Below are positions 3,509 through 48,042 of a stretch of 64,000 bases of DNA, piece by piece. A program made the translations under genes and the position numbers. Each line of letters begins with the position of its first letter. Position 1 is the stretch's first letter. Under the pieces are notes generated by a model. The model saw only the letters and a program-made list of their open reading frames with translations, did no database searches and was not told where the DNA came from. The DNA comes from Bacteroidetes bacterium OLB12 (lineage in GTDB: Bacteria; Bacteroidota; Bacteroidia; Cytophagales; Cyclobacteriaceae): positions 1 to 64,000 of the forward strand of contig LNFR01000009.1 of assembly GCA_001567185.1 (NCBI GenBank), in the 5' to 3' direction.

Positions 3509-4319
3509 CTATTTCGAATAGATCTCTTTTCCTTTTTCATCCCATTCTTTGCGCACATAGGGTCGAACTCCTTTTTCGAAAGGTTCTTTGGGATAGGCGA
3601 TAATGCGCTTGCGTTTTCCATTTGGATAGTTTTCGATCCAGTCATTTACACGTTCGCCCCAATGAAATTCGCCTTGCACGGCTACTTGCCCGTTTTCATG
3701 GAAGAAATAATAGTAGCCTTCTTTTTCACCGTACTCAATGGGGGTAATTTCTTTTAGTTTTTTTCTTTCGGTTGGATCGTAATACGTAACCAACGACTCC
3801 TTGGGCCAGCCCTTATAATACTTTTTCTTTGTCCTCTACTAAATCCTGCCGGTCGTAGCGCATCCAGCGCCCGTGTTTGGTTCCTTTAAAGAAAATACCT
3901 TCTTCAATTACGTTTTCGCCCACCATTCTTTTGTATGGGCCATGTGCCAATACACCTTTCTTCACATCAAACGCGGTTATACTTGTTTTACGTAATTCCT
4001 TGCGGGTGAAATCGTACCAGTACACATCGCGCGCAAAGCCGGTGGGCTTATCTGGTTTTTTCAATACATAGAAAAGCTCTACGGTCATTTTATCGCCAAA
4101 TCCTTTTCGTGTAAAAGCTTTTTTGGTTTTTATGCCATAATAAACTTTGCGCTTGGGCTTTTTCTTTTTGGTAGGAATTGGTTCTTCATTCTGATCCAGC
4201 TCCAGCAACGTAAAGGGTTTATCGGTATCAAAAGTAAACTGACCTTCCTGCACGGTAGGCTGTACCTGGGCCTGGGCTGTGCCAATAATAAATAATGCAA
4301 GTAAAAGGAGGCGCTGCAT
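3509..4319 (-). pseudogene. exported YwqK/MORN-repeat-like protein, frameshifted
   Basis: This is one gene split by a one-base shift. The upstream part starts at an ATG at 4319 with a clear signal peptide (MQRLLLLALFIIGTAQAQ) and runs to a stop at 3813. If one base is removed from the T5 run at 3822-3826 (A5 on the coding strand), the frame continues as DKEKYYKGWPKESLVTYYD into a second segment ending at 3509. The repaired protein of about 270 aa has repeated E/GxW or HGxW strands with YPNGKRK and FFHENGQVAVQGEF. These resemble the YwqK/MORN-type repeats of exported Bacteroidota proteins. Function is unknown. A homopolymer sequencing indel is as likely as a real mutation. Confidence 0.7.
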
Positions 4320-4376
4320 ATTTTCTGATAACAAAACGAAGTTATGGAAAATATATTTTAATCGGGGGGGCAATCA

Positions 4377-4410
4377 ACAGCAGGCCATTCTCAAAAGAAT
4401 GGCCTGCTGT
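4377..4410 (-). terminator. strong hairpin downstream of htpG
   Basis: A perfect 15-bp inverted repeat (4377-4391 with 4396-4410) around a 4-nt loop lies 13 bp past the htpG stop. No clear U-tract follows on the minus strand, so it may end transcription or protect the 3' end of the htpG message. Confidence 0.6.
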
Positions 4411-4422
4411 GCTTTGCATTGT

Positions 4423-6324
4423 TTACCCTACCATTTCCACACTACGCTTGATAAAATTAGTTAAATCGGCCCCGGTAAGCAGGTTTTGCGACAGCAAGGC
4501 TAAATCGTAAACCTGTTTGGCTAACCTGGTTTTCTGTTCTTCTGTTTCGGCTTTCAGAATTTTTTGAACTAATGCATGGTTGCCATTAACAGCCACATTG
4601 TAGCTGTCGGGCATGGCGCCCATAAAACCATACATGCCGCCACCACCACCGGTTTTTTGCATGTCTTTCATTCTGCGCATCCACTCACTCAGTGTAATGG
4701 TAACAGGCATATCTTCTGGCGAAAGCGATTCAATAGCCACAGTCATGTTGGTGTTATTAATGGCTGTTTCAAAAACTTTCTTCACCGTTTCTTCTTCTTC
4801 TTTCGTTAATACGCTTGCCACGTTTTCATCTTTGGCAATCAGTTTGTCGATGGTCTCACTATCCACCCGCTTTAGTTGGGTTTTTTCCAGTTTTTGTTCC
4901 AGGTGGTTAATGAAGTGGCTATCAATTATGCCATCCAGCACCAGCACATCGTAAGCCCGGTTTTTTGCAATCTCAATAAAGGCATGTTGCTTATCAGTAT
5001 TGGTAGTGTACAGGTATACTACATTTTTGTCTTTATCGGTTTGATTGGGCTTTGTCTTTTCTTCGTATTCCTTAAAGGTAAAATACTTACCGTCTGTGTT
5101 TTTAAGAAGAGCAAATTCCTTAGCCTTTTCATAAAACTTCTCATCGCTGATAATGCCGTATTTTACAAACACACTAATGTCATCCCATTTTTTCTCAAAC
5201 TCCGCGCGGTCTTTGATAAACATGTCCACCAGTTTATCGGCCACTTTTTTAGTTATGTGGGCACTGATTTTTTTTACGTTGGCATCGCTTTGTAAATAAC
5301 TGCGCGAAACATTAAGGGGAATATCGGGCGAATCCAACACGCCATGCAGCAACATTAAAAAGTCGGGCACAACATCTTTAACTTCATCGGTAATAAATAC
5401 CTGGCGCGAATAGAGTTGAATTTTGTTACGCTGAATTTCAAAATCATTTTTGATTTTGGGGAAGTAGAGCACCCCGGTTAAATTAAACGGATAATCTACA
5501 TTGAGATGAATCCAGAACAGCGGGTCTTCGCTAAAAGGATAAAGTTCTTTATAAAACTTCAGGTAGTCTTCATCCTTTAGCTCCAGCGGAGCTTTTGTCC
5601 AGATGGGCGAAGTGTTGTTGATGATGCGATCGGAAGTAACTGTTTTATATTTCGGCTTGTTGTCTTTGTCCACGCCATCTTCCACGCTTTCTTCTTTTGT
5701 TCCGAATTTGATTTCTACCGGAAGAAACTTACAGTACTTTTCGAGGATGCCCTTCAGGCGATATTCATCTAAAAATTCTTCTGAGTCGGCATTGATGTGC
5801 AGCACTACATCGGTGCCCCGCGTTTTCTTATCGGTTGCGGTTAATTCAAATTCGGTAGAACCATCGCACACCCACCGGGCTGCTTCTGTGTTTTCCTTAA
5901 ATGATTTTGAGATTACTTCAACTGTATCGGCCACCATAAAGGCCGAGTAAAAGCCCAGACCAAACTTGCCGATGATATCTTTCGCATCGGTTTTGTCTTT
6001 GAATTTTTCTACAAACTCGGTGGCTCCGGAAAAGGCAATCTGGTTGATGTATTTTTTTATCTCCTCGGCTGTCATGCCCAGGCCCTTATCGCTTACCGTA
6101 ATGGTTTTATTTTTTTTGTCGAAGCTTACTTCAATTTTCACATCGCCCAGTTCGCCATTAAATTCTCCTAACGAAGCCAGTTTTTTTAATTTCTGGGTTG
6201 CATCTACCGCATTGCTTACCAACTCGCGCAAAAAGATTTCGTGGTCCGAATACAGGAATTTCTTGATAATGGGAAAGATGTTCTCGGTATGAATGGAAAT
6301 GGTACCTTTTTCAGCAGTTGTCAT
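4423..6324 (-). CDS. htpG: molecular chaperone HtpG (Hsp90 family)
   Basis: This is a cytoplasmic ATP-dependent Hsp90 chaperone. The GHKL ATPase domain (about residues 1-230) shows EIFLRELVSNAVDATQKL with the catalytic Glu and Mg-binding Asn. It also shows the nucleotide-binding DKGLGMT and the lid GKFGLGFYSAFMV. The middle domain contains GVLYFPK and NVSRSYLQSD with the phosphate-contacting Arg. The C-terminal dimerisation domain follows. The length of 633 aa is normal. The ATG at 6324 gives the family N-terminus KGTISIHTENIFPIIKKF. It appears to be monocistronic: a terminator precedes it and a strong hairpin follows it. Confidence 0.96.
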   Translation of the reverse strand: MTTAEKGTISIHTENIFPIIKKFLYSDHEIFLRELVSNAVDATQKLKKLASLGEFNGELGDVKIEVSFDKKNKTITVSDKGLGMTAEEIKKYINQIAFSGATEFVEKFKDKTDAKDIIGKFGLGFYSAFMVADTVEVISKSFKENTEAARWVCDGSTEFELTATDKKTRGTDVVLHINADSEEFLDEYRLKGILEKYCKFLPVEIKFGTKEESVEDGVDKDNKPKYKTVTSDRIINNTSPIWTKAPLELKDEDYLKFYKELYPFSEDPLFWIHLNVDYPFNLTGVLYFPKIKNDFEIQRNKIQLYSRQVFITDEVKDVVPDFLMLLHGVLDSPDIPLNVSRSYLQSDANVKKISAHITKKVADKLVDMFIKDRAEFEKKWDDISVFVKYGIISDEKFYEKAKEFALLKNTDGKYFTFKEYEEKTKPNQTDKDKNVVYLYTTNTDKQHAFIEIAKNRAYDVLVLDGIIDSHFINHLEQKLEKTQLKRVDSETIDKLIAKDENVASVLTKEEEETVKKVFETAINNTNMTVAIESLSPEDMPVTITLSEWMRRMKDMQKTGGGGGMYGFMGAMPDSYNVAVNGNHALVQKILKAETEEQKTRLAKQVYDLALLSQNLLTGADLTNFIKRSVEMVG

Positions 6325-6408
6325 AATTGTCAGGATTTTAACTATTTAACTTGTTTCAGTCGGCCTTCAAATCATAAGCCAGTTGGTTTATGTGTGCCAT
6401 GATGACAG

Positions 6409-6432
6409 AAAAAAAGCCGGGGTTAACCGGCT
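6409..6432 (-). terminator. intrinsic terminator of the RNase G gene
   Basis: Directly after the RNase G stop, the minus strand carries a 6-bp GC-rich stem (6427-6432 with 6415-6420) and a 6-nt loop, followed by a run of seven T (6415-6409). This is a classical Rho-independent terminator separating RNase G from htpG. Confidence 0.8.
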
Positions 6433-8019
6433 CTATTCCTCTTCGCTTGTAATGGCGTTGTTTTTATTGCCTACTTCAATTTCTTCTCCGTCTCTGTTCA
6501 AAAAGTGAAACTCGGTAATGCCCAGCGAACTGTCTCGTACCAGGGTTAACCATTTTTTGTATTTGAAAAAGAACTTTACCCGCTTTGAAATAATGCCTTT
6601 GGTATAGTAGGCATATAAAAACGGGTGGAGGGCCAGCACCAGGTTGGTTTCATTCTGTTTAATGAACAGGTGATCCAGGTGTTGTTCAATCTGGTCGGTT
6701 ATCAGAATGGTTGCCGCAATGCTACCGCTGCCATTACAGGTAGGGCAAACCTCTTTGGTAACAATGTTCATCTGCGGGCGCACACGCTCGCGGGTAATCT
6801 GCATCAGGCCAAACTTGGAAAGAGGTAGTACGGTGTGCTTGGCGCGATCCAGCTCCATGGCCTCCTTCATGGCATTATAGATTACACGCTTGTTATCGGC
6901 ACTGCGCATATCTATAAAATCTACCACAATAATGCCGCCCATATCGCGCAGGCGCAACTGGCGCGCTACTTCTTTGGCGGCCTCAATATTTACCGATACC
7001 GCAGTGGTTTCCTGATTTTCTTCGCGGTTGGATTTATTGCCGCTGTTTACATCAATTACGTGTAGCGCTTCGGTGTGTTCAATAATCAGGTAGCCGCCTC
7101 CGCGCAAACTTACGGTTTGCCCAAAGGCCGACTTAATTTGTTTTTCGATTCCGTAATGCTCAAAAATTTTAGCCTTGCCGGAATAGAGTTTTACGATCTT
7201 CTCTTTTTCGGGGGCAATGTTGTGAATGTAGCCCTTTACTTCTTCAAAGATTTTTTTGTCGTCCACGTGCACATTGTCGAACGACTCGTTCAGTACATCG
7301 CGCAGTACCGAAGATGTTTTACTTAGCTCCCCGATCATTTTATCGCGCGGGTTGCCATCTACCAGGCGGGTTACACCTTCTTCCCAGGTTTTAACCAGGT
7401 TGCGCAGGTCTTTATCTAACTCAGCTACCTCTTTGCCCTCGGCTACGGTGCGAATAATTACGCCAAAGTTTTCGGGTTTGATAGACTGGATGAGGCGCTG
7501 CAGGCGCTTACGCTCTTCGCTGCTGGAAATGCGTTTGGAAACATTTACTCCGTTGCCGAAGGGTACCAACACGAGGTAGCGTCCGGCAATGGATAACTCG
7601 CACGAAAGTCGCGGGCCTTTGGTAGAAATTGGTTCTTTTACTACCTGTACCGGAATAAGCTGGCCTTTGGAAAGTTGCTGGCCAATTTTGCCATGCTTGT
7701 CAATGTCTTTTTCAACATGAAACTTATCCAGCTTGCCCCCGGTAATCTTTTTAGATTTTACCAGTTTGGTGAATTTCTGAAGCGAATTAAATTTTGGGCC
7801 GAGATCCAGGTAATGCAAAAACGCATCCTTTTCGTACCCGATATCAATAAACGCTGCATTAAGTCCTTGTACTACTTTTTTAACAGTACCCAGGTAAATA
7901 TCACCCACTATAAACTTGTTGCTTCCTTCATCTTCATGAAATTCAACAAGCTGTTTGTCTTTAAGAAGGGCTATGCGACATCCGTTCTGAGTAGCACTGA
8001 TTATAAGTTCGTTACTCAA
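6433..8019 (-). CDS. rng: ribonuclease E/G family protein (RNase G)
   Basis: This is an endoribonuclease for rRNA maturation and mRNA decay. An S1 RNA-binding domain begins at about residue 38 (GDIYLGTVKKVVQGLNAAFIDI). The RNase E/G catalytic core follows with LHVIDVNSG and IIVVDFIDM, supplying the two metal-binding Asp. CPTCNGSG is the Zn-link dimerisation motif. At 528 aa it is RNase G-sized, with no long degradosome scaffold. The start is TTG at 8019: an in-frame stop lies seven codons upstream and no ATG intervenes. It is downstream of the HU, TPR and AURKAIP1-type genes on the same strand. Confidence 0.93.
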   Translation of the reverse strand: MSNELIISATQNGCRIALLKDKQLVEFHEDEGSNKFIVGDIYLGTVKKVVQGLNAAFIDIGYEKDAFLHYLDLGPKFNSLQKFTKLVKSKKITGGKLDKFHVEKDIDKHGKIGQQLSKGQLIPVQVVKEPISTKGPRLSCELSIAGRYLVLVPFGNGVNVSKRISSSEERKRLQRLIQSIKPENFGVIIRTVAEGKEVAELDKDLRNLVKTWEEGVTRLVDGNPRDKMIGELSKTSSVLRDVLNESFDNVHVDDKKIFEEVKGYIHNIAPEKEKIVKLYSGKAKIFEHYGIEKQIKSAFGQTVSLRGGGYLIIEHTEALHVIDVNSGNKSNREENQETTAVSVNIEAAKEVARQLRLRDMGGIIVVDFIDMRSADNKRVIYNAMKEAMELDRAKHTVLPLSKFGLMQITRERVRPQMNIVTKEVCPTCNGSGSIAATILITDQIEQHLDHLFIKQNETNLVLALHPFLYAYYTKGIISKRVKFFFKYKKWLTLVRDSSLGITEFHFLNRDGEEIEVGNKNNAITSEEE

Positions 8020-8042
8020 AACTTTAAAATTTAGGCCTTATA

Positions 8043-42051: not shown

Positions 42052-43832
42052 GTCTGTGCTTTTCCTGCTGTGTAGCATCAGCACGTTACTCTTCGGGCAG
42101 GCTAAAACCGATTCACTCTATATCCGAACAACCTGGTTGGATATTTGCCTGATGATGCAAAAGTGGCGGTTGCCTTTTCAAATCGGGCGGTTCGCGGAAA
42201 ATTTAATGTGGTGGATGTTTCTTCCGGCAAGACTGTCTTTACAGGTAAAATAACTCCTTCCCCGGCTCCCGGGTATAACAACTTCACTTTTTATTATCAC
42301 CTAGAGTTTACCGCATTGCAAACTTCCGGTAACTATCAAATCGAGATTCCAAAAATTCCCGCAGTTACTACTCCTTTCACCATCTCAAAAAATGCGTATG
42401 GAAACTACGCAGAAGATCTTCTGGGGTTTATGCGCCAGCAACGTTGCGGCTACAATCCTTACTTCAACCACACGTGTCATGAAAAAGATGGCCGCACGAT
42501 GGACGGGCCCATGCCTGATTCTACTTATATTGATGCGCGCGGGGGTTGGCACGATGCCGGAGATCAATTGAAATACCTGATTACTTCCAGCAATGCAACC
42601 GCCCGGATGATTATGGCCTACCAGTTGTTTCCGGAAAAGTTTGCCGATGAAGTGAATGCATTAGGCCAGCCTGGAAAGAATCAGATTCCGGATGTGTTGG
42701 ACGAAGCCAGGTGGGGCCTCGATTGGATTCACAACCTTCATCCGGTACCGGGTCAGTTATTTCATCAGGTGGCAGACGATCGCGATCATATTGGCTGGAA
42801 ACTACCCACATCCGATCCGAGCAATTATGGTTGGGGCAAAAATTCCTATCGGGTTGCCTACTATGCAACCGGAAGTCCGCAAGGCGCGGGCGCTATAAAA
42901 GCGAAGCAACCGGAATTGCAAACCTGGCGGGGCGATCGGCAGCAGCCCTTGCGCTTGGCTACCAGGTGTGGAAACACGAACTGCACGATGAAGCCTACGC
43001 GCTGAAATGCCTGGAAGCCGCTAAAGATCTTTATAACATGGCTAAGAAACAGGAAGGGTATCAACAAGGAAATTCCTTTGGTGCTCCGTATCGGTATAAT
43101 GAAGACACCTGGACGGATGATATGGAATGGGCGGCTGCAGAATTGTACCGGGCAACCCGGGAAACAAGGTATCTTGAAGATGCTAAAAAATATGCCGTTG
43201 CAACGGGCACACTTTCGTGGATTGAAAATGATACCACCGCGCATTATCAACACTATCCTTTTTTGAACATCGCACATTATAGTCTTTACTCTTTGGTAGA
43301 TGATGACTTCAAAAAAAAGCTGGCGGGTTACTACCAGGCAGGCATTGAAAAGACATTGAAGCGTGCAAACAAAAATGCCTTTGGGTATGGTGTGCCCTTC
43401 ATCTGGTGTTCGAACAACCTGGCCGTTGATCTGGCGCTTCAGATTTTGCTTTATGAAAAAATGACGGGCGATTTAACCTATCATTCCTATGCACTGGCTA
43501 TTCGCGATTGGTTGTTGGGGCGCAATCCGTGGGGCACAAGTATGTTTATGAACATTCCACAGCACGGAGAATACCCACAGGATGTTCATACCAGCACCTG
43601 GGCACTAACCAAAAAAGAAGTGCCCGGAGGATTGGTGGATGGTCCGATTTATACGCGCATCTACAATAGCCTGATCGGTCTTAAGTTAAATCAGCCGGAT
43701 GAGATGGCTGCGTTTCAGAATACGTATGTGGTTTATCACGATGATATCGGAGACTACTCCACCAACGAGCCCACCATGGATGGTACGGCTTGTGCCATCA
43801 TGCTGCTGGCCTGGTTTGAGCAAATTCCTTAA
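42032..43832 (+). pseudogene. secreted glycoside hydrolase family 9 endoglucanase, two frameshifts
   Basis: This is a cellulase-type enzyme with a signal peptide (MVRIITKSVLFLLCSISTLLFGQ) and a CelD-type Ig-like domain starting IRTN-x-VGYLPDDAKVAV. The GH9 alpha/alpha barrel contains the catalytic Asp motif GGWHDAGDQLKYL, NPWGTSMF, and the catalytic Glu in YSTNEPTMDGTACA. The frame breaks near 42130-42131 (one A missing) and at 42888-42890 (one G missing in a G run). Homology continues perfectly in the next frame each time, for a repaired product of about 600 aa. Both are single-base losses, so assembly error is a strong alternative to decay. Confidence 0.85.
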
Positions 43833-43998: not shown

Positions 43999-44316
43999 AT
44001 GAAACAAGATGACATATACGGGCCATTTTTCGATAGCGTATTAGTGACCAGTCGCTCACTTTCTATTACAATCGAAAGTGGACATAAGTCAACAATTAAT
44101 TCTTCAAAGGATGATGATGATCCATATAGGTATTGGGTCATTATTTACACCGACTCCGATCCCAGACAAGAATACGTGCGGTATCTGGTTAACATTTCGG
44201 CAATAGAGTTGCATATCAGCAACAACGGAAAGGAGGAACTGAATTTGTTGTTAACCCATTGGAAAGAAACAGAACCGGGGGTTATTGTTCAATGTGATCT
44301 TACTTCTGAATCCTAA
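43999..44316 (+). CDS. small acidic protein, first gene of the CHAT operon
   Basis: This is a 105-aa cytoplasmic-type protein from ATG 43999 (MKQDDIYGPFFDSVLVTSRS). An upstream reading from 43909 is also open, but its N-terminus has no support. The body alternates beta-like segments (SLSITIESGHKSTI, YWVIIYTDSDPRQEYVRYL) with an acidic DDDD patch and ends LTHWKETEPGVIVQCDL. I do not recognise a family. It is 10 bp upstream of the 24-residue peptide and 100 bp upstream of the exported 140-residue protein, so it probably belongs to the same operon. The 166-bp upstream gap holds only a weak -7-like element. Confidence 0.65.
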   Translation: MKQDDIYGPFFDSVLVTSRSLSITIESGHKSTINSSKDDDDPYRYWVIIYTDSDPRQEYVRYLVNISAIELHISNNGKEELNLLLTHWKETEPGVIVQCDLTSES

Positions 44317-44326
44317 ATTTCATTTT

Positions 44327-44401
44327 ATGTCTGTTCGTACACGCGTAACCACAACCACCTCCGGAGGAACTCCTACCAGCCAGGCAGTTGTTTCGGCTTA
44401 A
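44327..44401 (+). CDS. 24-residue peptide resembling the tail of its neighbour
   Basis: A 24-codon ORF has an ATG at 44327 and a TAA at 44399-44401. The peptide starts MSVRTRVTTTTSGG and ends SQAVVSA. Its last 21 residues align with the C-terminal 19 residues of the 140-aa protein encoded next (RTRVTST..GG..TS..VV), with about 12 identities. No signal peptide or other domain is present. It could be a free peptide related to the tail, a substrate or mimic for the CHAT protease downstream, or the 3' remnant of a lost duplicate. Its function and even its translation are unproven. Confidence 0.5.
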   Translation: MSVRTRVTTTTSGGTPTSQAVVSA

Positions 44402-44416
44402 CTTCATTTATTTTGT

Positions 44417-44839
44417 ATGATTCGCATTTTGATTTTTCTCATACTGCCTTTCATAAGTGTTTCGCTTTCAGCGCAGGTATTTCAGGATCATATAAATGGC
44501 AAAACATTGATTATTGACAGCTTAAATGGTGTAACGAATCTTGGCTTTAAAGTGGAACTGTTCAAGAAGAGAACATCAGTCACTGTAGAAATTCTATATC
44601 AGGACTTAACAACCGAAACAAAGGAAATTTATGACAAAGGGGGGGCAACCTTTTCAATAAATGCCGCCAATATCAAAGAAGTACGGGTTGTTCACAAACG
44701 TAAGTTCATTTTCAAATTCAAAAACAAAATTGACTACCCGAAAGATACTATCCCGAAAAGAACTATAAAGAGGAGCAACCGCACCAGAGTAACATCTACC
44801 GGGGGCAGCGGCACATCTACCGAAGTTGTAGCCACATGA
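44417..44839 (+). CDS. exported basic protein with RTRVT/GG tail, partner of CHAT protease
   Basis: This 140-aa protein has a signal peptide (IRILIFLILPFISVSLSAQ). The middle is a beta-rich domain (FKVELFKKRTSVTVEILYQ, EVRVVHKRKFIFKFKNK) and the C-terminal linker is strongly basic (PKRTIKRSNR). It ends in a Ser/Thr/Gly-rich tail with RTRVTSTGG and a final EVVAT. This tail closely matches the free 24-residue peptide encoded just upstream. The stop overlaps the CHAT gene ATG (ATGA at 44836), so the two are translated together. I recognise no family. An exposed cleavable tail is an inference. Confidence 0.75.
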   Translation: MIRILIFLILPFISVSLSAQVFQDHINGKTLIIDSLNGVTNLGFKVELFKKRTSVTVEILYQDLTTETKEIYDKGGATFSINAANIKEVRVVHKRKFIFKFKNKIDYPKDTIPKRTIKRSNRTRVTSTGGSGTSTEVVAT

Positions 44840-47800
44840 ACTGGTGGCGTTGCATCTTGCTGTTCCTGGCTATTACTGATCTAAACGGAACAGGTTATGC
44901 TCAAATTAATCTTACCCTAAAAAGTCTTGAATCTGAAGATCCTGTTGCTGCTGGGTTCTATCTGAAAAAAATTAACCCTTCTTTAGAGCGTGATTTACTG
45001 GAAGCCGAAATCGCCTTTCTTAACAACGACTTCAGTCTCCTTGATTCTACTTTAAGCAGGATTGATAAAGTACGGTTGTCAAAATGCAAGGCCCTTCAAC
45101 AGATTACACTTCGTGGTCTGCTCGCATATAAGCGCAACCGCTTTGCGGAAGCTCAAAATATTTTTAACCAGGCGAAAGAATTGTCATCCACATGTAATGA
45201 TCCGTACTATCAGGCCGCATACGTAAATTATTGGAGCGGTTATGTTTCGTTAGAGTTGGGCGATTTGAGTTCAGCACAACAGGAGTTGTCAAATGCGATA
45301 AAATTTTTTCAAACCGATACAACCCGCTTCCGGGTAAAGTTAGCTCATAGCTATTTTTGGTTAGGAGCCCTCAAATTAAAACAAGAGCAATATGAAGCCT
45401 CCATCACGCATCTGAATTTATCGCTCGCGATTTATCAAAATTTGCCTTTGGACAAATCAGACATACAATCGAAAATCTATAATAACCTGGGTGCAGCACA
45501 TAATGGATTATGGAATTATAACGAGGCCATACGGGCATACAAGCAGGCTTTAAGTTTGAACATTGCCAAACGTGCCGCCCCTGAAGAACTTGCCATTGTT
45601 TATTCCAATTTGGGTAGGTTTTATGAACTCTACGAAAATTTTATTCAATCAAAAGAATATTACGATAAAGCAATTCACTATCTGAATGATGGCAACCTCT
45701 CCCCCGACAGAAAAGCACTAATTTATCAGAATTATGGAACGGTGTTGTCCAAACAATATCTCTACGTACCGGCTCAAAATCAATACCTGATTGCATTGAA
45801 AATTATTGAACCCTATAAAGAAATATATGGCAATATCTATGCGCGTATCCTTATTAACATAGCCTACAGTTTTCTTAACCAGGAATCCTATACAGCTGCT
45901 GAACGATGGGAAAAGGAACTGGATGAGTTTTTTAAAAGTCATGGCAACAAATTTTCAGAGCAGTTGCAAGAGTGGCAGCTTTACCAGGCAATCAGAGACC
46001 AATTGCTTGGTGATTACAAGGGGGCGTTGACCTTGCTGGATGTACTGGAAAAAAATACCCCGCAGGATGATCAGCACTTAAAGATTCTTCAGGTTAAAGC
46101 GAGTGTGCTGAAAAAACTGAATAGCCAGGAAGAAAGTCAAGCTAAGTACCGACAGCTCATAAACCATTACTTAACTAAACTGCCGGTTACACATCCTCAA
46201 ATCATACAGTTGTATAACGAGCTGGCGTCAACCTTTGCAGGAACACCCTACGAAAAAGATTCATCTATATTTTACTACACCCTTGCCAGGAAAAACAATC
46301 TGCTCATCAATCCACTAAATAAAGAATCAGCTTTTTATGCTTCAAAGGTTGAGTGGATTATCTCCAATTATTACCTGCTGAAAATAGCACTAACTTCTTT
46401 TAAAGCGAATGATGGTGACTTTAAAGAACTACTTAAGGCCGAAGGGCTGATTCAGTCTTCGGTATCTGTAATTCAATCGCAAAGAGTAGAAATGAGAGAA
46501 AGTGCCGATGTGATTAATCTTATGCGCTTATACCATGAATTTTTCGACCTGGCAATGGAATACTACTATACGGCATACACCCACAGTGCCGATAAATCTT
46601 ATCTGGATAAGGCCTTTCTTATTTCTGAAAAAACGAAATATCAAAGCCTGTTGGCTTCCATGAAGCTTGATAAGGTAAATGCATTTTCGCGTGTTACAGA
46701 CAAGGTATTAAGTGAAGAAAGAAAGTTAACCACTGAGGTTGCACAACTTGAGTATCAATATTCGCAGGAAGTAGCAAAGCAAAGCGAACCTTTACCGCAA
46801 TTGTTAGATGAGTACCTTACCCAATGGAAAAACACAACTAGTAAGTTTGATCACTTTCTTGATTCCATTAAACTAAACCTGCCAGATTATTATAATCTTA
46901 AGTTTAACAAAACTTCGGTTGAGGTTTCTCAAATTCAGAACGACTTCTTATCGAAATATCCACACATGGCGTGGGTATCATTTTACCAGGGTGAGCAATT
47001 CAGCTATGCCCTGCTGATTTCCAGTAACGAAAAGCATTTTCTTAAGCTTGGCAATAGTCAAACAATCTCCAGACAGCTTAATGCACTCAAAAACTCAACA
47101 AACCTTCAGCTTACCGAAGAGTTTCATCAAGCCTCCGAGGCGCTGTATATGACTACATTCAAAGCCATAGACAGTTGCCTTCTTTTGCTTCCTCAAAAAA
47201 TAACCGATCTGGTGGTTATCCCCGATGGCAACCTGAGCCTGCTAAATTTTGAATTACTGGGAAAAAGAAATAAGACAGTATGGTCACCCATTCTGTTACG
47301 ATATACATTTTCTTATGGTTATTCTTCCTCCCTTCTTTGGATTGAATTCAGAGAAAAGCAATCCATAAATCTTTCTAAACTGAACATGATAGCGTTTGCT
47401 CCGGAGTTTAAATCGGGAACCGATACGCAGAAAGGCCGCAGGTCACTTGAAAATGAAAACCTGTACGAGGATTTTGATTTTCAGCCACTCGAAAAAAATC
47501 AGGATGAGGTTGTAAAATCATCAGAGGTTTTAAAGAAGCATAAGGTTAATTCGAAGCTCTATTTGGGCGAAACAGCAAACGAAGCCAATTTCAAGAAAGA
47601 AAGTCTTTCTTCCTATGATATAATTCATCTTGCCACGCATGGTTTTGCCGGAGATGGTTTACCGGGAGTTGCATTTGCCCGAAGTTCCGAATCTGACGAT
47701 GACGATATATTGTTTATGGAAGAAATTTTTGCGCTTAGAAATAAGGCCCGGTTGCTCTGCCTATCGGCTTGCGAAACGGCCGTGGGCAAAATTAGTACTG

Positions 47801-48042
47801 GTGAAGGCATTATTGGACTTACAAGGGCCTTTCTTTATTCCGGAAGCCAAAACATCATTGTTTCTCTCTGGAAAGTGAATGATGAAAAAACTGAAAAGCT
47901 TATGGTAGAATTTTATGCACGGCTTGCCAAAACCAGGTCGATCTCAAAATCCTTACACCAGGCAAAAGTAAGCATGATAAAAAAAGACCCTGCGTTGCAT
48001 CCGGCACATTGGGCAGCCTTTATCCATATTGGGCTTGATTAA
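44836..48042 (+). CDS. exported TPR-CHAT domain protease
   Basis: This 1068-aa protein has an N-terminal signal peptide (WWRCILLFLAITDLNGTGYAQ). An array of about eight or more TPR-like repeats follows (residues about 75-450, e.g. NNLGAAHNGLWNYNEAIRAY). Next come a helical/coiled region (about 560-690) and a C-terminal CHAT caspase-like domain (about 760-1068). The catalytic dyad is intact: His935 in IIHLATHGFAGDG and Cys979 in LCLSACETAVG. CHAT proteins are Cys peptidases related to caspases and separase, and some cleave a dedicated partner protein. Translational coupling to the tailed 140-aa protein points to that protein as partner or substrate. Export would place the action in the periplasm. 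Confidence 0.92.
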   Translation: MNWWRCILLFLAITDLNGTGYAQINLTLKSLESEDPVAAGFYLKKINPSLERDLLEAEIAFLNNDFSLLDSTLSRIDKVRLSKCKALQQITLRGLLAYKRNRFAEAQNIFNQAKELSSTCNDPYYQAAYVNYWSGYVSLELGDLSSAQQELSNAIKFFQTDTTRFRVKLAHSYFWLGALKLKQEQYEASITHLNLSLAIYQNLPLDKSDIQSKIYNNLGAAHNGLWNYNEAIRAYKQALSLNIAKRAAPEELAIVYSNLGRFYELYENFIQSKEYYDKAIHYLNDGNLSPDRKALIYQNYGTVLSKQYLYVPAQNQYLIALKIIEPYKEIYGNIYARILINIAYSFLNQESYTAAERWEKELDEFFKSHGNKFSEQLQEWQLYQAIRDQLLGDYKGALTLLDVLEKNTPQDDQHLKILQVKASVLKKLNSQEESQAKYRQLINHYLTKLPVTHPQIIQLYNELASTFAGTPYEKDSSIFYYTLARKNNLLINPLNKESAFYASKVEWIISNYYLLKIALTSFKANDGDFKELLKAEGLIQSSVSVIQSQRVEMRESADVINLMRLYHEFFDLAMEYYYTAYTHSADKSYLDKAFLISEKTKYQSLLASMKLDKVNAFSRVTDKVLSEERKLTTEVAQLEYQYSQEVAKQSEPLPQLLDEYLTQWKNTTSKFDHFLDSIKLNLPDYYNLKFNKTSVEVSQIQNDFLSKYPHMAWVSFYQGEQFSYALLISSNEKHFLKLGNSQTISRQLNALKNSTNLQLTEEFHQASEALYMTTFKAIDSCLLLLPQKITDLVVIPDGNLSLLNFELLGKRNKTVWSPILLRYTFSYGYSSSLLWIEFREKQSINLSKLNMIAFAPEFKSGTDTQKGRRSLENENLYEDFDFQPLEKNQDEVVKSSEVLKKHKVNSKLYLGETANEANFKKESLSSYDIIHLATHGFAGDGLPGVAFARSSESDDDDILFMEEIFALRNKARLLCLSACETAVGKISTGEGIIGLTRAFLYSGSQNIIVSLWKVNDEKTEKLMVEFYARLAKTRSISKSLHQAKVSMIKKDPALHPAHWAAFIHIGLD

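What the first reader, a model, noticed from the sequence alone, without database searches (positions are those of the whole stretch)
43999..48042. CHAT-protease operon with a free 24-residue peptide that copies the tail of the adjacent exported protein
Seen in sequence: the peptide at 44327-44401 (RTRVTTTTSGG...SQAVVSA) aligns with the last 19 residues of the 140-aa protein at 44417-44839 (RTRVTSTGG...EVVAT), with about 12 identities. That protein is coupled by ATGA to a TPR-CHAT Cys-His protease (His935, Cys979). Established: some CHAT proteases cleave a dedicated partner. Inference: the shared RTRVT-GG-TS-VV tail is a recognition, cleavage or assembly signal. The free peptide may be a substrate, competitor or signal.
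Basis: partly seen in the sequence, partly recalled or inferred. Interest (0 to 1): 0.78.

Follow-up and report, generated by a model that had tools for sequence, protein, structure and literature searches.

The report
Free peptide copying protease partner's tail
In a small group of Cytophagales-type bacteria, a four-gene cassette around an exported caspase-like protease also encodes a free peptide of 23-25 residues that stays matched to the tail of the protease's neighbour protein as both change, which suggests that the two copies bind the same, still unknown, partner.

Summary
The window carries a four-gene cassette: gene 1 (105 aa), a 24-aa peptide ORF, a 140-aa protein with a signal-like start, and a TPR-CHAT protein with a signal-like start. 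A gene 1 profile finds 5 of 62 genomes of the genus; all 5 carry this gene order, one with a frame break. In 5 of 5 the peptide matches the tail of that locus's own 140-aa-type protein beyond composition-preserving shuffles. The motif differs between lineages, but peptide and tail change together: true pairing is best of 24 permutations of four non-redundant loci. At 55 identical aligned residues, 15 codons are the same, against 14.3 expected from codon usage, so the likeness is kept at protein level. None of 1604 control pairs around other CHAT genes scored as high. Best reading: one short C-terminal docking motif in two copies, one tethered and exported, one free, both binding one partner, perhaps the protease's TPR groove. 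Receptor, compartment of the peptide and any cleavage are inferred, not shown. No known family was found for gene 1, peptide or exported protein.

The parts
43999..44316 (+). gene 1, 105 aa, no signal-like start; unknown family, predicted all-beta
   Evidence: present with the cassette in 5 of 62 genomes of the genus; alignment A2/A4 with invariant LLTHW and QCDL; model pLDDT 77.5; no hit in Pfam above cut-off, NCBIfam, PADLOC or PHROGs
44327..44401 (+). free peptide ORF, 24 aa
   Evidence: same place in 5 of 5 cassettes; match to tail
44417..44839 (+). 140-aa protein with signal-like start and matching tail; unknown family
44777..44836 (+). codons of the last 20 residues (NRTRVTSTGGSGTSTEVVAT), the tail that the peptide copies
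44836..48042 (+). TPR-CHAT protein, 1068 aa, signal-like start; overlaps the gene before it by ATGA
47134..48033 (+). CHAT domain (residues 767-1066) with His935 (47638-47640) and Cys979 (47770-47772)
   Evidence: PF12770 E 3.3e-54; H935 and C979 invariant in the four CHAT proteins aligned

Best explanation
The cassette is an exported CHAT-protease module in which one short C-terminal docking motif is made in two copies. One copy is the tail of the small exported partner whose gene overlaps the protease gene. The other is a free 23-25 residue peptide from the same gene row, without an export signal. Both bind the same site on a partner that evolves with them, most likely the TPR groove of the CHAT protein: tail docking presents or holds the exported partner (as substrate or inhibitor), and the free peptide competes for the site. 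Shown: the gene order, the match, its co-variation between lineages and its maintenance at protein rather than DNA level. Inferred: transcription as one operon, translation of the peptide, a shared receptor, its identity as the TPR groove, competition, and any cleavage by CHAT.
For: Same order in 5 of 5 cassettes. Within-locus match beyond shuffles in 5 of 5 and true pairing best of 24. 15 of 55 identical residues share the codon, 14.3 expected, so selection acts on the amino acids. The match reaches the C-terminus of both copies (last-12 identities 6, 6, 11, 8, 11). ATGA coupling of tail protein and CHAT. TPR repeats in the CHAT protein, by sequence nearest among solved structures to designed TPRs and kinesin-light-chain-type TPRs; that such TPRs bind peptides is recalled. 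Precedents: Csx29 binds the C-terminal domain of Csx30 (PMC10028731, passages); PatS peptide and HetN protein share RGSGR and act on HetR (PMC7761841, start of abstract).
Against: Peptide and tail seem to be made for different compartments. No receptor was identified: the grouping of the first TPR part (residues 24-300, 11 of 16 informative sites join G031 with G008) follows the motif type only in part, since G097 has that type too and does not follow. In Csx29 the partner docks on the CHAT2 domain, not on the TPR (passages). Five loci only, two of them near copies. Some cross-locus pairs score as high as true ones: G031 peptide 46 with its own tail, 47 with those of G008 and G097. One locus has a broken gene for the tail protein.
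Confidence: 0.42

Rival explanations
1. Self-assembly: peptide and tail are matching beta-prone segments that co-polymerise, as proposed for amyloid signalling motifs of neighbouring genes, and gathering of tails switches on the protease. Co-variation is then needed because the copies bind each other.
For: Thr/Ser/Val-rich, 20-25 residues, matched within a locus; known motifs work in heterotypic pairs from co-located genes, C-terminal on the effector side (PMC12261475, passages).
Against: No NLR-type receptor among the four genes; the tail protein and peptide seem to lie in different compartments; no amyloid predictor or BASS model was run.
Confidence: 0.2
2. Signal peptide pair: CHAT cuts the tail off outside the inner membrane to release a signal, and the free ORF gives an inhibitor or immunity copy of it inside the producer, as with pheromone and inhibitor peptides that bind one receptor.
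For: A protease and a tail that could be cut off lie side by side; lineage-specific motif types would suit specificity groups; cCF10 and iCF10 bind the same domain of PrgX (PMC5552905, start of abstract).
Against: No receptor, importer or transporter gene in the cassette; no cleavage shown.
Confidence: 0.15
3. Gene 1 is the shared receptor: a cytoplasmic beta protein that binds the free peptide and also the tail of the partner before export, as a chaperone or antidote.
For: Gene 1 always lies directly before the peptide and, like it, lacks a signal-like start.
Against: The gene 1 tree-like signal joins G031 with G000 (9 of 10 informative sites) against the motif type of G031; no ligand-binding fold could be named.
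Confidence: 0.13
4. Chance or remnant: a low-complexity small ORF or a leftover of a duplicated tail.
For: Segments are Thr/Ser-rich; small ORFs are common (187 ORFs of at least 20 aa overlap a 12-kb stretch); few differences between G000 and G023 show no special constraint.
Against: Composition-preserving shuffles and pairing permutations, 1604 control pairs, codons no more alike than chance, start, stop and place kept in 5 of 5.
Confidence: 0.05

Closest known systems
Csx29 (TPR-CHAT) and Csx30, Craspase of type III-E CRISPR
   Same: TPR-CHAT protease with a dedicated partner that it recognises through the partner's C-terminal part (PMC10028731, passages).
   Different: Here the protease has a signal-like start, there is no Cas7-11 gene in the cassette, and a free peptide copies the partner's tail. 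Csx29 was not among the 45 solved sequences matched by the profile of the CHAT proteins at E 0.001.
HetF and PatU3 of Anabaena
   Same: HetF has protease activity that can cleave the regulator PatU3 (PMC12288457, passages); that HetF is a CHAT protein is from recall and the listing.
   Different: No free copy of the substrate's tail is mentioned in the passages seen.
PatS peptide and HetN protein acting on HetR
   Same: A short free peptide and a longer protein share a motif needed for activity and act on one receptor (PMC7761841, start of abstract).
   Different: Other motif (RGSGR), other receptor; not a protease cassette.
Bacterial amyloid signalling sequences (BASS)
   Same: Matched short motifs in products of neighbouring genes, C-terminal on the effector side (PMC12261475, passages).
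   Different: Those pairs join an NLR receptor and an effector; here one member is a free peptide and the other an exported small protein.

Membership tests
CHAT protease (PF12770) | CHAT domain above the curated cut-off | tested here: met
   184.7 bits, cut-off 24, residues 767-1066
CHAT protease (PF12770) | conserved His and Cys | tested here: met
   His935 and Cys979 invariant in the four CHAT proteins aligned: G000, G008, G031, G097
CHAT protease (PF12770) | proteolytic activity | not testable with these tools
   needs an assay
Csx29/Csx30 (Craspase) | Csx29-type sequence of the protease | tested here: not met
   no TPR-CHAT entry among the 45 PDB sequences matched at E 0.001 by the profile A6; the ones listed are TPR proteins of other kinds
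Csx29/Csx30 (Craspase) | Cas7-11 and CRISPR array beside it | not tested
   no Cas gene is evident among the ORFs listed near the cassette, but no CRISPR search was run
BASS amyloid signalling | motif pair in neighbouring genes | tested here: met
   peptide and tail match in 5 of 5
BASS amyloid signalling | motif at the N-terminus of an NLR receptor | tested here: not met
   none of the four window proteins matches an NLR-type model in Pfam at E 1
BASS amyloid signalling | membership of one of the ten BASS sequence families; amyloid formation | not tested
   no BASS model at hand
known anti-phage defence proteins | match to a PADLOC-DB model | tested here: not met
   0 of 4 window proteins at E 0.1

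The most novel reading that the evidence does not exclude
A membrane-breach sensor with a two-copy key. The tail keeps the exported CHAT protease in check (or loaded) outside the inner membrane, while an interchangeable free copy is kept inside. When the inner membrane is opened, for example during phage lysis, the cytoplasmic peptide reaches the protease, displaces the tail and switches it on, so that mixing of compartments is itself the signal. The evidence does not exclude this: the copies are selected to stay alike, and only the tethered one has a signal-like start.
Probability: 0.1. Interest if true: 0.9.

Novelty: new variant of a known kind. Interest (0 to 1): 0.6.

Why it matters
It is a natural case in which a free peptide gene is selected to stay a copy of a neighbouring protein's tail. 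That gives a direct handle (synthetic peptides, swapping of pairs between lineages) on how exported CHAT proteases, which are numerous in these genomes (52 of 58 genomes matched), choose and control partners. It also shows how a gene of 23-25 codons with no family match can be argued to be real through co-variation with its neighbour.

Tried and rejected
Wider homologues. CHAT residues 21-555: 2 of 196 genomes of the family, the window's own and G523, whose 10 kb read holds no cassette. These genome sets overlap and are samples of larger groups.

The 140-aa protein as query: 4 of 96 genomes at E 0.001, of which G043 (a 787-aa frame, E 6.8e-4) was taken as chance without follow-up; the search missed G008. 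The G008 peptide against five genomes: only itself at E 1, so this short query missed even its own tail and says little about further copies.

Structure. Gene 1 model pLDDT 77.5, all beta; solved-structure matches are weak (best E 0.02, none at 0.001, TM-scores below 0.5 in the 50 rows shown), so no fold is claimed. The model of the 140-aa protein (pLDDT 47.7) was not used. G011 has a CHAT protein of 28 % identity behind a 164-aa lipoprotein-like gene, no peptide ORF found, and no secure kinship of the small protein (hhalign probability 6 %).

Errors of mine. In one search the G097 CHAT was read out of frame; its peptide comparison was repeated in frame, its hydropathy value is void. In one search the script took a wrong ORF as CHAT in L003 and L058 and could not see the broken-frame tail of L043.

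Literature. Nine searches of the held library listed no paper on a free peptide that copies the tail of a CHAT partner; I saw listings and, for five papers, passages only. Most subscription journals are not held.
Full report
What is there. Window 43999-48042 holds four genes in one direction: gene 1 (105 aa), a 24-aa peptide ORF, a 140-aa protein and a 1068-aa TPR-CHAT protein. Ten bases separate gene 1 and the peptide ORF, 15 bases the peptide ORF and the next gene; the last two genes overlap by ATGA. The 140-aa and CHAT proteins begin with hydrophobic, signal-like segments; gene 1 and the peptide do not (highest 11-residue hydropathy in the first 32 residues: 2.96 and 2.46 against 1.34 and 0.32 in the window; over the five loci at least 1.77 for the first two, leaving out the void G097 CHAT value, and at most 1.34 for the others). 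No signal-peptide predictor was at hand, so export is a judgement from these segments.

Relatives. A gene 1 profile finds 5 of 62 genomes of the genus: G000 (the window's own), G023, G031, G008 and G097. All five carry the four genes in the same order; in G097 the third gene has a frame break. By the identity of a neighbouring S9 peptidase, eight genomes stand close to the window (81 % or more; the next is 60 % or less; 45 of 62 had a match), and five of these eight have the cassette. In G000, G023 and G031 it lies upstream of the S9 peptidase, with an AIR-synthase-like gene further upstream; in G008 and G097 it lies elsewhere. In G097 and G060 only about 0.6-0.7 kb lies between the AIR-synthase-like frame and the S9 match, without cassette (1.5 kb read). 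So the cassette is lineage-restricted and has changed place or been gained more than once. Samples of the order, phylum and family and the viral contigs gave no further one.

The match. Peptide and tail by locus: G000 MSVRTRVTTTTSGGTPTSQAVVSA and NRTRVTSTGGSGTSTEVVAT; G008 MPVRTTISSGVTTSTTSTTVTST and TRVRVESGTATSTTSTTVTST; G031 MPGVRTSIKTTSPTLNTTTTTITST and RVRLSSQSAGGTTTATTITST; G097 MPVRTSVSSSTTITATTTTVTST and RITVSSGTTSTATTTTVTST (read in a second frame behind a run of eight A). G023 is a near copy of G000. Each local score exceeds shuffles of its own peptide (5000 each: P 2e-4, the floor, in four loci; 1.4e-3 in G031). Over four non-redundant loci the true pairing is the single best of 24 by local score (237, next 216) and by identities in the last 12 residues (36); with 24 permutations the test cannot go below 0.042. 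Not each cell favours the true partner: the G031 peptide scores 46 with its own tail and 47 with those of G008 and G097; the G008 peptide scores 67 with the G097 tail and 68 with its own.

Kept at protein level. At the 55 identical aligned residues of the four loci 15 codons are the same, where the codon usage of the window's CHAT gene predicts 14.3 (G023 left out as a near copy: 4 of 11, expected 3.1). Nucleotide identity of the aligned codons is 30/63, 37/60, 32/60 and 42/60. G097 leans to sharing (7 of 16, expected 4.2), G031 away from it (1 of 12, expected 3.2). A recent duplication or gene conversion would leave shared codons; the copies look old, and their likeness is best explained by selection on the amino acids. 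Between G000 and G023 the peptide has 3 synonymous and 2 nonsynonymous differences in 24 codons, too few for a test and no sign of stronger constraint than gene 1 (17 and 12 in 104 codons) or the start of CHAT (34 and 29 in 298 codons).

Controls. Small ORFs against the tails of neighbouring ORFs gave 403 pairs in 19 other CHAT loci, best 31, and 1201 pairs in 36 of 40 further CHAT loci, best 38; none reached 46. So the arrangement is not general among the exported CHAT genes looked at. The peptide does not resemble gene 1, CHAT or the body of the 140-aa-type protein beyond chance: 15 comparisons, one at P 0.03 (G031 with CHAT), the rest at 0.24 or more.

Which partner. Something must make both copies change together: CHAT, gene 1, the body of the exported protein, or the copies themselves. 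Informative sites of the four-locus alignments join G031 with G000 in gene 1 (9 of 10) and in CHAT-protein residues 301-480 (6 of 8) and 481-766 (11 of 18), against the motif type of G031; the CHAT domain is undecided (5, 8, 4). Residues 24-300, the first TPR part, join G031 with G008 (11 of 16). This is the one stretch where G031 follows a genome of its own motif type, but G097 has that type too and does not follow, so it is a hint at most.

Function. His935 and Cys979 are invariant in the four CHAT proteins aligned, so an active protease is likely. A known TPR-CHAT protease, Csx29, acts on a dedicated partner, Csx30, recognised through its C-terminal part, though by the CHAT2 domain and not the TPR (PMC10028731, passages). 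A free peptide and a protein that share a motif and act on one receptor are known from PatS and HetN (PMC7761841, start of abstract). Together these suggest one docking motif in two copies for one site, which I place on CHAT with less than even odds. The compartment question is open: without a signal the free copy should stay inside. It may be exported by an unknown route, act before export, or meet CHAT only when the membrane is breached; the last is the boldest reading not excluded.

Limits. Five loci, effectively four independent ones; no expression data; no usable model of the 140-aa protein; a fair gene 1 model that matches no solved fold convincingly. Three of the genomes can be named from records with equal or nearly equal contig length, all metagenome-assembled: Cyclobacteriaceae bacterium SSA6, Flammeovirgaceae bacterium UBA2786 and Cytophagales bacterium UWPOB_CYTO1.

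Noticed in passing
L043 (G097), reverse strand, about 3524-3967: The gene of the 140-aa-type protein is broken at a run of eight A; the tail goes on in another frame and still matches the free peptide. Assembly error, recent break or slippage cannot be told apart.
   Followed up: partly
window 42145-43005 and 42711-43832: A gene upstream of the cassette (by recall glycoside hydrolase family 9-like; no family search run) lies in two overlapping frames here but is one 597-aa ORF in G023.
   Followed up: no
L044 (G011) 4288-8020: A CHAT protein of 28 % identity stands behind a 164-aa lipoprotein-like gene, without gene 1 or peptide: possibly an older two-gene form of the pair.
   Followed up: partly
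L052-L061, for example L056 3810-7465: A different CHAT gene with a signal-like start sits in a repeated gene order in several genomes of the genus, directly behind a gene whose product has GCSDAGFCTMGAMKPDQP after its signal-like start.
   Followed up: no
L117 (G097) and L120 (G060), first 1.5 kb: The site that holds the cassette in the window has a minus-strand frame (...MELTLTTPALLFPTVSLILLAYTNRF...) instead of the cassette.
   Followed up: partly
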